Assembly (NCBI RefSeq): GCF_014161445.1
Contig: NZ_JABBXA010000017.1
Span: 124,001-188,000, forward strand
Source of the DNA: Microbispora sp. H13382
GTDB taxonomy: Bacteria; Actinomycetota; Actinomycetes; Streptosporangiales; Streptosporangiaceae
DNA: 64,000 nucleotides
Direction of reading: 5' to 3'
The position numbers and the translations under genes were made by a program. The notes under the pieces were generated by a model that saw only the letters and a program-made list of their open reading frames with translations, searched no databases and was not told the origin of the DNA. Below, in pieces: positions 32,696 through 41,683 of the stretch (position 1 is its first letter; each line of letters opens with the position of its first letter).

Positions 32696-33256
32696 CTACT
32701 TGGATTTTGGTGGGGTCGACGAGATTCGAACTCGCACTGTACGGCACCTAAAGCCGCGGTCTCCTGCCATTGGACTACGACCCCTTCGCGTTTTCCCTTG
32801 CCCGCGAGATTCTCGGTCTGAGAATGGCAGTTCGGGCAGAGGAATCGCAGATTCTCTCTTCTGTTGTCCAGCCGGTTTTCCGTTGACGTGGTCGATGTGC
32901 AATGTCAGCGACCGGCCCTGCCAAGTGCCGCCTATCTTACAGTCTGCGCAGCGGTAGGGGACTCCCACTTCACGTAGTGCCCGCCGGAGCTTGCCCGGCT
33001 TCTCGCGAGCGGCGCCGACGGGATTCAGGACCAGCACGTCCGCCGGTAGACGCCGTCGCGGCGACGGCTGGCCTCGCCTATGAGCCTGGCCCAGGAAGTG
33101 GGAGGTGTCGATACCGACGTGCTTGAGGCGGCCGCTGATGTGGGCGTGGACGCCGCCCGACCACGGGATGCCGAGGTGGCGCAGCGCGTCGGCGATGCTC
33201 GCCGCCTTCGCCGCGGCCTCGGCCGGCAGACCGGATGTGTATTTGTACTTCACCAT
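32696..33256 (-). pseudogene. HNH endonuclease gene, frameshifted, abutting the tRNA
   Basis: The first 120 codons match actinobacterial HNH endonucleases (VKYKYTSGLPAEAA..., GGVHAHISGRLKHVGIDTSHF, YRCADCKIGGTWQGR, LHIDHVNG). After NG the frame fails: the expected LDNRRENLRFLCPNCHSQT is present but in the +1 frame, with one surplus base within 32871-32882. Without the shift the second CxxC of the HNH zinc site is lost. In the shifted frame the recognisable domain ends near 32785, exactly at the tRNA 5' end, and the frame then runs through the tRNA without a stop. The gene may be broken, or the sequence may carry an indel error near the TTTT run. ATG 33256 is the likeliest start. Confidence 0.7.
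32711..32784 (-). tRNA. Atypical class I tRNA with UAG (Leu) anticodon
   Basis: Seventy-four nt fold as a cloverleaf: a perfect 7-bp acceptor stem (GGGGTCG/CGACCCC), an irregular D-arm containing AATGGCA, an anticodon stem GCGGC/GCCGT around loop TTTAGGT, a 5-nt variable loop ACAGT, and a T-arm GCGAG-TTCGAAT-CTCGT. The discriminator is A73, and CCA is encoded at 32710-32708. The loop places UAG at positions 34-36, the Leu(CUA) anticodon, and matches the loop of ordinary tRNA-Leu(UAG). However, the long class II variable arm of bacterial tRNA-Leu is missing. The D-stem pairs only 3 bp in either register. Identity is therefore uncertain: A73 suits LeuRS, but this could be a specialised or degenerate tRNA. 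Confidence 0.8.
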
Positions 33257-33313
33257 GTCCCGGAATTCATCGGCGGCCGCCGACAATCCCGGGAGTGCGG
33301 CGAAAGGGATATG

Positions 33314-33781
33314 TCAGGAAATTCCCAGCTCTTTCGTGAGGCGGGCGACATGGCCGGTGGCCTTCACGTTGTAGAGAGCCTTCTCGATCTTCCCATCGGG
33401 GTCGATGACGAACGTGGACCGGATGACGCCCATCACGGTCTTTCCGTAGTTCGTCTTCTCGCCGTACGCGCCGTACGCCTTGTGCACGTCCAGACCGGCG
33501 TCGGACAGCAGCGGGAAGGTGAGCGCGTCGCGCTCGCGGAACTGCCGCAGCTTGGCGGGCTTGTCCTTGGACACGCCCAGCACCACGAAGCCCTGCCCGG
33601 TCAGCGCGCCGAGGTTGTCGCGGAAGTCGCAGGCCTGCTTGGTGCATCCGGGGGTCATCGCCGCAGGGTAGAAGTACAGGATGACCCGCCTGCCGCGGAG
33701 CGACTCCAGCGAGACCTCGTTGTCGTCGGCGTCGGTCAGGGTGAAGTCCGGCGCGGCGTCGCCGGGCTGGAGCTTGCTCAT
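33314..33781 (-). CDS. bcp: Thioredoxin-dependent peroxiredoxin, Bcp/PrxQ type
   Basis: A 155-aa thiol peroxidase reducing hydroperoxides. Peroxidatic Cys46 in MTPGCTKQA and resolving Cys51 five residues on (CDFRD) are the PrxQ arrangement. The fold landmarks APDFTLTDADDNEVSL and FVIDPDGKI are present. ATG 33781 has GGAGG 5 nt upstream. The HNH remnant and tRNA lie downstream on the same strand. Confidence 0.94.
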   Translation of the reverse strand: MSKLQPGDAAPDFTLTDADDNEVSLESLRGRRVILYFYPAAMTPGCTKQACDFRDNLGALTGQGFVVLGVSKDKPAKLRQFRERDALTFPLLSDAGLDVHKAYGAYGEKTNYGKTVMGVIRSTFVIDPDGKIEKALYNVKATGHVARLTKELGIS

Positions 33782-33915
33782 CACGTCCTCCGGAAAATGT
33801 GACCCGCGGCGATCGGCGGGCAAGCGTGAACCAAACTACCGGCTCAGTCGCTGTGCGGGGCGACCGGCGGACCTGGCAGACTGATCACACACCAATACCA
33901 CAGAAGGGGGATCGC

Positions 33916-41385: not shown

Positions 41386-41578
41386 TCCTCCCCCTCTGTC
41401 ATCGGCGCCTGAGAGCTTCGTCCGATCTTTGCCGGACTTTCACCTTCGGCGAGGCCTGCCGGCCTTCTTTCCAGAGGTCACCTGGCCCGTACGGTCCTTT
41501 GCCTTGAGAGGTTCGCGGGGAGGGCTTGCTCCTTCAGGGGCCCTGACCGGATGCCAGGACGCTCTCCCGCACGGGATC
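41386..41578 (-). ncRNA. Tandem glycine riboswitch
   Basis: The gcvT leader on the minus strand has two glycine aptamers in series. The first includes CGGGAGAG (near 41570), GAAGGAGCAA, and CTCTCAAGGCAAAGGACCG. The second includes CTCTGG, GCCGAAGGTGAAAG and CTCTCAGGC with the closing GACAGAGG (near 41395). These are the conserved cores of the class. The last aptamer ends about 45 nt before the gcvT start. It should turn on glycine catabolism when glycine is abundant. Confidence 0.92.
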
Positions 41579-41683
41579 ACTGGTGCGCTGTCCAGCCTAG
41601 TGGTTCGCCGCCACCCCCGTAACCTGCCGGATGCCCTTATTTCCGGCCCGCACCGCCGGCGCCGCCGAGGTCAGGAAGGCGCA

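What the first reader, a model, noticed from the sequence alone, without database searches (positions are those of the whole stretch)
32711..32784. Class I tRNA with a UAG leucine anticodon and no long variable arm
The sequence folds as a 74-nt cloverleaf with a perfect acceptor stem, encoded CCA, A73 and loop TTTAGGT, which puts UAG at 34-36. Bacterial tRNA-Leu is class II with a long variable arm; this one has only 5 nt, and its D-stem is irregular. It may be a specialised leucine donor, a tRNA mischarged by another synthetase, or a regulatory tRNA-like RNA. A73 is the main LeuRS identity base, so leucylation is plausible.
Basis: partly seen in the sequence, partly recalled or inferred. Interest (0 to 1): 0.75.

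Follow-up and report, generated by a model that had tools for sequence, protein, structure and literature searches.

The report
Short leucine tRNA lacking variable arm
This is most likely a working leucine tRNA of an actinobacterium that lacks the long arm textbooks say bacterial leucine tRNAs have; other actinobacteria and phages carry such tRNAs, and close relatives can differ in which form they keep at the same chromosomal spot.

Summary
The tRNA is real: minus strand, 32784..32708, 77 nt, encoded CCA, anticodon UAG, 5-nt variable region. It is not an extra copy. Among the 57 tRNA genes found in this genome five are tRNA-Leu: CAG and GAG are class II; UAG, UAA and CAA are class I. This one is the only CUA reader, beside a single, bacterial-type LeuRS. 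It keeps the leucine determinants known from E. coli (A73, A14, A15-U48, G18G19, A20a), where the long arm is dispensable. Three CUA codons checked (of seven) sit at leucines conserved elsewhere.

The gene follows bcp. At that locus other actinobacteria carry class I or class II tRNA-Leu(UAG), and two pairs of congeners differ. In 345 genomes, patterns found class I in 50, class II in 206, both in none. Similar short tRNA-Leu occur in many phages.

I read it as an ordinary CUA-decoding tRNA-Leu of variant architecture, exchanged with class II at a fixed locus. Charging and expression were not tested. Two papers touch on it (a short tRNA-Leu(UAG) in mycobacterial tRNA arrays; a remark implying that two M. 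tuberculosis tRNA-Leu lack the long loop). I found no survey.

The parts
32708..32784 (-). class I tRNA-Leu(UAG) gene with encoded CCA (32710-32708)
   Evidence: ARAGORN, Rfam RF00005 52.2 bits, found in 13 of 14 other genomes of the genus
32748..32750 (-). anticodon UAG (positions 34-36), loop UUUAGGU
   Evidence: sequence, parse
32736..32740 (-). 5-nt variable region ACAGU, ending in U48, the partner of A15
   Evidence: parse
32758..32775 (-). D-arm, positions 10-25, and position 26: GUC/GAC three-pair stem, C13.A22 mismatch, loop with A14 A15 G18 G19 A20a
   Evidence: parse; determinants listed in PMC9976931 (passages)
32711..32711 (-). discriminator A73
32785..33286 (-). HNH endonuclease gene between bcp and the tRNA; reading frame shifted between 32899 and 32838, so probably not functional here
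   Evidence: searches (frames; no other match in this genome), Pfam HNH PF01844 23.3 bits against cut-off 21.4 for an unbroken relative
33314..33823 (-). bcp / PrxQ-like thioredoxin-dependent thiol peroxidase, the upstream neighbour
   Evidence: NCBIfam NF006960 163.2 bits, cut-off 140

Best explanation
The gene makes a functional leucine tRNA that reads CUA (and probably CUG) codons in normal translation. The single bacterial-type LeuRS charges it through A73 and the D-loop/T-loop corner (A14, A15-U48, G18G19, A20a), which are kept, so the long variable arm can be absent. It is one of three class I tRNA-Leu (UAG, UAA, CAA) that serve the minor leucine codons here, while the readers of the major CUC/CUG codons (GAG, CAG) stay class II. 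The gene occupies a locus behind bcp at which class I and class II tRNA-Leu(UAG) have replaced each other more than once in Actinomycetota. Shown: structure, tRNA and LeuRS inventory, conservation, locus, absence of detected co-occurrence of the two forms, leucine positions of CUA codons. Inferred: charging by LeuRS, expression, CUG reading, direction and mechanism of the switches.
For: Only UAG tRNA among 57 in a genome rated 99.99% complete. One LeuRS: 938 bits to the bacterial model; nothing over the cut-off of the archaeal LeuRS model; the related frames are ValRS, a second ValRS, IleRS and MetRS. CUA codons of window genes align with leucine codons read by class II tRNAs in 17 of 23 informative comparisons, in line with TTG 58 of 77, CTC 530 of 820 and CTG 706 of 1160. 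Three CUA sites fall on Leu in solved homologues: serine dehydratase L414 (1 of 1 full-length alignment), ABC ATPase L115 (4 of 5 alignments shown, Val in the fifth), sigma factor L89 (5 of 5 shown). Among 64 class I tRNA-Leu of other anticodons A73 64/64, A14 64/64, A15-U48 91%, A20a 92%; among 733 other class I tRNAs A73 56%, A15-U48 33%. In E. coli the long arm is not crucial and variants lacking it and the anticodon arm stay active (PMC9976931, passages). Class I UAG in 50 of 345 genomes of the class, class II UAG in 206 of 345, both in none. On a tree of 100 Bcp proteins class changes 11 times at the least on the best tree, 2 on well-supported branches.
Against: No charging, expression or modification data for this organism. 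CUA is rare (7 codons in 49 ORFs), so the codon test rests on few sites, and only three of the seven were checked outside the relatives. Six of 23 CUA comparisons are not Leu (F 2, Y, M, P, V). The class II pattern misses real class II genes (4 found by another pattern in 7 genomes tried), so the mutual exclusion is only as good as the patterns; outside G000 I did not read whole tRNA sets. About 3% of the 247 class I UAG tRNAs parsed, some in this genus, have C48 instead of U48, which breaks A15-U48.
Confidence: 0.92

Rival explanations
1. A tRNA charged by another synthetase, so that CUA is reassigned (as in yeast mitochondria, where a tRNA-Thr has anticodon UAG).
For: Class I shape, unusual for tRNA-Leu; it is the only CUA reader.
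Against: Three CUA codons sit at leucines conserved in distant proteins and CUA exchanges with CTG/CTC/CTT (17 of 23); leucine determinants kept; 7-nt anticodon loop, whereas the yeast mitochondrial tRNA-Thr(UAG) has 8 (PMC7609411, passage).
Confidence: 0.03
2. A decayed or silent tRNA gene.
For: The neighbouring HNH gene is frame-shifted; the tRNA-model score ranks 53rd of 57 in this genome, though class II tRNA-Leu score as low.
Against: Perfect acceptor, anticodon and T stems, encoded CCA, found in 13 of 14 congeners and in other families; without it CUA would have no reader.
Confidence: 0.02
3. A specialised leucine donor or regulatory RNA in addition to, or instead of, a role in translation.
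For: Nothing direct. The three class I tRNA-Leu serve rare codons (58 of 1733 leucine codons in the 49 ORFs); in Streptomyces a rare-codon tRNA-Leu, bldA, has a regulatory role (recalled).
Against: The neighbours are a peroxidase and an HNH gene; class II tRNA-Leu(UAG) takes the same place in relatives, which suggests the same job.
Confidence: 0.05
4. On evolution only: class I at this locus is ancestral in Actinomycetota and class II returned in some lineages, so no phage or homing event is needed.
For: Class I UAG is spread over Pseudonocardiaceae, Streptosporangiaceae, Nocardioidaceae, Micromonosporaceae, Acidimicrobiia and others, mostly as single tRNA genes.
Against: Class II is also widespread at the bcp locus, and congeners differ (G017/G346, G133/G231), which needs exchange within genera in one direction or the other.
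Confidence: 0.45

Closest known systems
Bacterial class II tRNA-Leu (E. coli type)
   Same: Leu anticodon, A73, A14 A15, G18G19, A20a, three-pair D stem; same bcp locus in relatives
   Different: no long variable arm; in this genome D stem GUC/GAC, CCC/GGG or GCC/GGC with C13 instead of GCG/CGC with G13, and A9 instead of G9
Short tRNA-Leu(TAG) of mycobacterial tRNA gene clusters, probably phage-derived (PMC6582537, passages read)
   Same: short variable loop, UAG anticodon, HNH genes in the clusters
   Different: there a cluster copy beside a resident tRNA-Leu(UAG) with a normal loop; here a single chromosomal gene and the only UAG tRNA of the genome
Phage tRNA-Leu (Streptomyces, Thermobifida, Lactobacillus phages)
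   Same: BLAST matches of 76-86% in the 20 rows listed of 50; the two looked at are short, UAG in phage P318 and CAA in TunaTartare
   Different: carried by phages, some in arrays; the matches do not cover the whole acceptor stem
Mitochondrial tRNA-Leu(UUR)
   Same: charged by its LeuRS without a long arm, through A73 and A14 (PMC9976931 section 53, passage)
   Different: organelle, separate LeuRS, loose anticodon stem
M. tuberculosis tRNA-Leu set (PMC11541572, passages read)
   Same: the text says that tRNA-Leu-2, -3 and -5 especially have a long loop, which implies that others do not
   Different: no statement on class I architecture or function
SegB homing endonuclease beside phage tRNA genes (PMC13096335, abstract and passages)
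   Same: free-standing homing endonuclease gene beside tRNA genes
   Different: phage-borne and of another endonuclease family (recalled); no homing was shown here

Membership tests
bacterial tRNA-Leu (functional isotype) | leucine anticodon (UAG) | tested here: met
bacterial tRNA-Leu (functional isotype) | A73, A14, A15-U48, G18G19, A20a | tested here: met
   for this tRNA; determinants from PMC9976931 (passages)
bacterial tRNA-Leu (functional isotype) | decodes leucine codons as leucine | tested here: met
   indirect and on few sites; sole CUA reader
bacterial tRNA-Leu (functional isotype) | aminoacylated by LeuRS | not testable with these tools
   one LeuRS gene present
class II tRNA | long variable arm | tested here: not met
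   5 nt, ACAGU
phage-type class I tRNA-Leu | 5-nt variable region plus leucine D-loop signature | tested here: met
phage-type class I tRNA-Leu | carried by a phage or tRNA array | tested here: not met
   only tRNA in the 64-kb window; window genes have homologues in the matching regions of relatives
allo-tRNA (8/4, 9/3 fold) | 8/4 or 9/3 acceptor/T-stem lengths | tested here: not met
   7/5
CUN-reassigning tRNA (yeast mitochondrial tRNA-Thr UAG type) | 8-nt anticodon loop and CUN not read as Leu | tested here: not met
   7-nt loop; CUA at conserved Leu
homing endonuclease-tRNA unit | HNH endonuclease gene next to the tRNA gene | tested here: met
   14 of the 19 loci L003-L021; Pfam HNH for an unbroken relative; broken in the window
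homing endonuclease-tRNA unit | cuts an allele lacking it and drives co-inheritance of the tRNA | not testable with these tools
   HNH occurs with both tRNA classes (27 of 92 class I, 2 of 18 class II loci); the independent-pair test has too few pairs

The most novel reading that the evidence does not exclude
Probability: 0.15. Interest if true: 0.85.

Novelty: new variant of a known kind. Interest (0 to 1): 0.6.

Why it matters
The rule that bacterial tRNA-Leu is class II is used to assign tRNA isotypes and to think about LeuRS recognition. Here three of five isoacceptors of one genome break it, and patterns for such tRNAs hit 50 of 345 genomes of the class (UAG) and 68 of 100 relatives (UAA or CAA; these hits were not folded one by one). 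So the experiment of removing the long arm seems to have been run repeatedly in working cells, with class I and class II at the same locus in congeners. That makes LeuRS recognition, replacement of tRNA genes and resistance to variable-loop nucleases directly testable.

Tried and rejected
Pseudogene, codon reassignment and a separate donor or regulatory role were considered and are argued against in the rivals. (class II UAG pattern) was a failed search: my gap was off by one, it found 0 of 345 and is not used. One search repeats it with a form that I had tried, with any middle anticodon base, on 25 class II tRNA-Leu held: it fits both of this genome but only 10 of 25 in all, most of them from phages, so it is not sensitive. 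Its backward control hit 3 of 345 genomes. A first codon comparison included wrong-frame ORFs and identical codons and is superseded; even there a few of the 49 ORFs are probably antisense. HNH presence against tRNA class: the independent-pair test had 2 pairs on well-supported branches and cannot decide. No match on plasmids. The promoter/terminator scan gave 0 promoter-like sites and a chance number of terminators. RNAfold's minimum-energy folds of the CAA and UAA class I tRNAs are not proper cloverleaves, nor is that of the class II GAG tRNA; ARAGORN and the base-pair parse support cloverleaves, CAA with 4 of 5 anticodon-stem pairs. Paper searches for class I or short-arm tRNA-Leu in bacteria gave the two partial reports cited and no survey; one search looked for homing endonucleases at tRNA genes. 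The library holds open-licence papers only, and I read passages, not whole papers. One paper on unusual cloverleaf tRNAs that I wanted was not held.

Full report
WHAT IS THERE. ARAGORN finds one tRNA in the window, tRNA-Leu(tag) at 32708-32784, minus strand. The Rfam tRNA model matches 32784-32711 with 52.2 bits, gathering score 29. Parsed by position: acceptor 7/7 pairs, anticodon stem 5/5, T stem 5/5, loop UUUAGGU with anticodon UAG, variable region ACAGU (5 nt), A73, then encoded CCA. The D stem has three pairs and a C13.A22 mismatch; the D loop carries A14, A15, G18, G19 and A20a; U48 is there to pair with A15.

THE GENOME'S LEUCINE SET. The window lies in G000, 8.7 Mb, 70 contigs, rated 99.99% complete. 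The tRNA model gives 57 matches above its cut-off and three below it. I read the 57 with ARAGORN (stretches). Leucine: CAG 86 nt and GAG 87 nt (class II); UAG 77, UAA 76 and CAA 76 nt (class I; ARAGORN prints some with and some without CCA). There is no second tRNA for UAG, UAA or CAA. By wobble rules (recalled) only the UAG tRNA can read CUA. One gene passes the bacterial LeuRS model (938 bits, 844 aa); none passes the archaeal LeuRS model; the related frames are ValRS, a second ValRS, IleRS and MetRS. The UAA and CAA tRNAs lie beside a pyridine nucleotide-disulphide oxidoreductase gene and an ANTAR response regulator gene, so they too look like resident chromosomal genes (inference).

IS IT READ AS LEUCINE? 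In 49 window ORFs with high third-position GC and homologues in six relatives, CTA occurs 7 times, TTA 3, TTG 48, CTT 32, CTC 619, CTG 1024, of 16,278 codons. Leaving out identical codons and codons read by the class I tRNAs, CTA pairs with CTC/CTG/CTT in 17 of 23 comparisons, TTA in 5 of 7, TTG in 58 of 77; controls: CTT 46 of 62, CTC 530 of 820, CTG 706 of 1160. The six misses for CTA are F 2, Y, M, P and V. The six relatives were picked because they have the class I UAG tRNA, so I also looked outside, at three of the seven CTA sites: codon 414 of the serine dehydratase aligns with Leu in 4rqo; codon 115 of the ABC ATPase with Leu in 4 of 5 printed alignments and Val in a MacB one; codon 89 of the sigma factor, the Leu of NLRLV, with Leu in 5 of 5 printed alignments. 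The sample is small but one-sided.

HOW IT CAN BE CHARGED. The review PMC9976931 (passages) states for E. [quoted passage not shown] human mitochondrial LeuRS charges a tRNA-Leu without the long arm, and A73 and A14 matter there as in E. coli. This tRNA has all these features. To see whether that is general I parsed the distinct short tRNAs in the loci held (filters kept 247 of 257 Leu UAG, 64 of 72 other Leu and 733 of 863 other tRNAs). The UAG set was mostly chosen by a pattern that fixes A14, A15, G18G19, A20a and the spacing, so it cannot be counted for those. The 64 with other anticodons were not so chosen: A73 64/64, A14 64/64, A15-U48 91%, A20a 92%, 13-22 unpaired 91%. The 733 others: A73 56%, A15-U48 33%, 13-22 paired 84%. 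Exceptions exist: about 3% of the 247 have C48, among them several of this genus.

DISTRIBUTION IN GENOMES. BLAST with the 77 nt: matches in 24 of 60 genomes, G000 among them; 18 of the other 23 are class I tRNA-Leu(UAG) (L004-L021), one is an 18-tRNA array, three are tRNA-Gly and one is no tRNA by ARAGORN. In the genus 13 of 14 other genomes have it; the fourteenth is in 810 contigs. The nearest named loci are Microbispora, so I take the genus to be Microbispora (inference). A pattern for class I UAG hits 50 of 345 genomes of the class, 26 of them among the 34 of the own family. A pattern for class II UAG hits 206 of 345 and none of the 34. No genome has both hits; 89 have neither. In 7 of these 89 a looser pattern gave true class II genes in 4 (G017, G043, G048, G057) and none in 3. 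G017 is in the own family, so the family is not purely class I, and G011, missed by the class I pattern, has a class I gene. Class I UAA or CAA patterns hit 68 of 100 relatives; I did not search class II UAA or CAA there. Class I CAG or GAG patterns hit 9 of 100, all in the own family, and all 12 loci fetched hold at least two tRNA genes.

PHAGES. BLAST finds 50 phage records, 41 of Streptomyces phages; the 20 listed rows have 76-86% identity. The Thermobifida phage P318 match is a 74-nt UAG tRNA that its record does not annotate. The other leucine tRNAs called in those 80 loci are 44 class I (CAA 19, UAA 15, GAG 9, AAG 1) and 19 class II; a few of these calls look doubtful.

THE LOCUS. In the window the tRNA follows bcp on the same strand. 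Over the bacterial loci held (stretches of different length, some places twice), class I UAG: 180 tRNAs, 101 with a bcp match in the stretch, 82 of these on the same strand, downstream, within 900 nt, 6 on the opposite strand within 900 nt, 13 farther off; class II UAG: 35 tRNAs, 20 with bcp, 16 on the same strand downstream within 900 nt, 4 farther. So bcp linkage is far from universal (57 of the 120 named loci), but where it exists both classes use it. On a tree of 100 Bcp proteins (82 class I, 18 class II) class changes at least 11 times on the best tree; well-supported branches force only 2; shuffled labels need 16.8 on average, so class is also inherited. Congeners differ: in g4 G017 is class II (L379) and G346 class I (L380); in g93 G133 is class II (L381) and G231 class I (L229). 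Streptomyces regalis and S. mangrovisoli have class I, and G057, unnamed but in one well-supported group with them on the Bcp tree, has class II.

THE HNH GENE. Of the 19 loci L003-L021, 14 carry an HNH gene that ends at the tRNA and five do not. In those 14 the HNH frame has no stop before the tRNA: it ends inside the tRNA in 2 and beyond it in 12 (for L003, the window locus, this is the frame of the second half). In the window the frame shifts inside the HNH motif, so this copy is probably dead. I found no other copy in the genome. HNH occurs with class II too: 2 of 18, against 27 of 92 for class I (one query, so distant HNH genes are missed). A role in spreading the tRNA allele, like that of SegB in phages (PMC13096335, abstract and passages; PMC6582537 cites a paper on SegB and inheritance of the T4 tRNA region), is a guess that I could not test.

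WHAT IS ALREADY IN PRINT. [quoted passage not shown] PMC11541572 (passages) says that M. tuberculosis tRNA-Leu-2, -3 and -5 especially have the long loop. The genetic-code screen PMC8629427 (passages) does not contain the term CUA. I found no paper that describes class I tRNA-Leu as sole decoder or class switching at a locus (open-licence library only).

VERDICT. Not shown: charging, expression, direction and mechanism of the switches.

Noticed in passing
window 41386-41579 (-): Tandem glycine riboswitch aptamers (66.5 and 51.1 bits); ordinary.
   Followed up: no
window 32838-32899 (-): The HNH gene is frame-shifted within its HNH motif in this species; of the 13 relatives among L004-L021 that have the gene, 12 show one open frame across it and L005 lacks the N-terminal part in frame.
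   Followed up: partly
L004-L020 (relatives), HNH-tRNA junction: The HNH frame never stops before the tRNA; in several relatives it stays open through the tRNA and a spacer into a small ribbon-helix-helix-like ORF (18.6 bits, below the Pfam cut-off of 20.5). Chance, overlapping genes or nonstop mRNA after tRNA processing are possible.
   Followed up: partly
L035 (G000:C55:330436-330595): Two adjacent tRNA-like genes with nearly the same arms but odd anticodon loops (ARAGORN reads a 4-nt and a 2-nt anticodon).
   Followed up: no
L070, L074 (G000:C66:176954-179170): A second valyl-tRNA synthetase of the NCBIfam 'alt_ValS' exception type beside the normal ValRS on C11.
   Followed up: no
L022 / L425 (G015:C72): An array of 18 tRNA genes in about 1.5 kb with class I tRNA-Leu for CAA, GAG and CAG.
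   Followed up: partly
L418 (Streptomyces phage TunaTartare): One phage carries a class II tRNA-Leu(UAG) (85 nt) and a class I tRNA-Leu(CAA) (75 nt) about 1 kb apart.
   Followed up: no
G000:C34:241585-241757 and 270877-271147: Repeated Cys(GCA)-Gly(GCC) tRNA pairs, with Val(GAC) at one of them.
   Followed up: no
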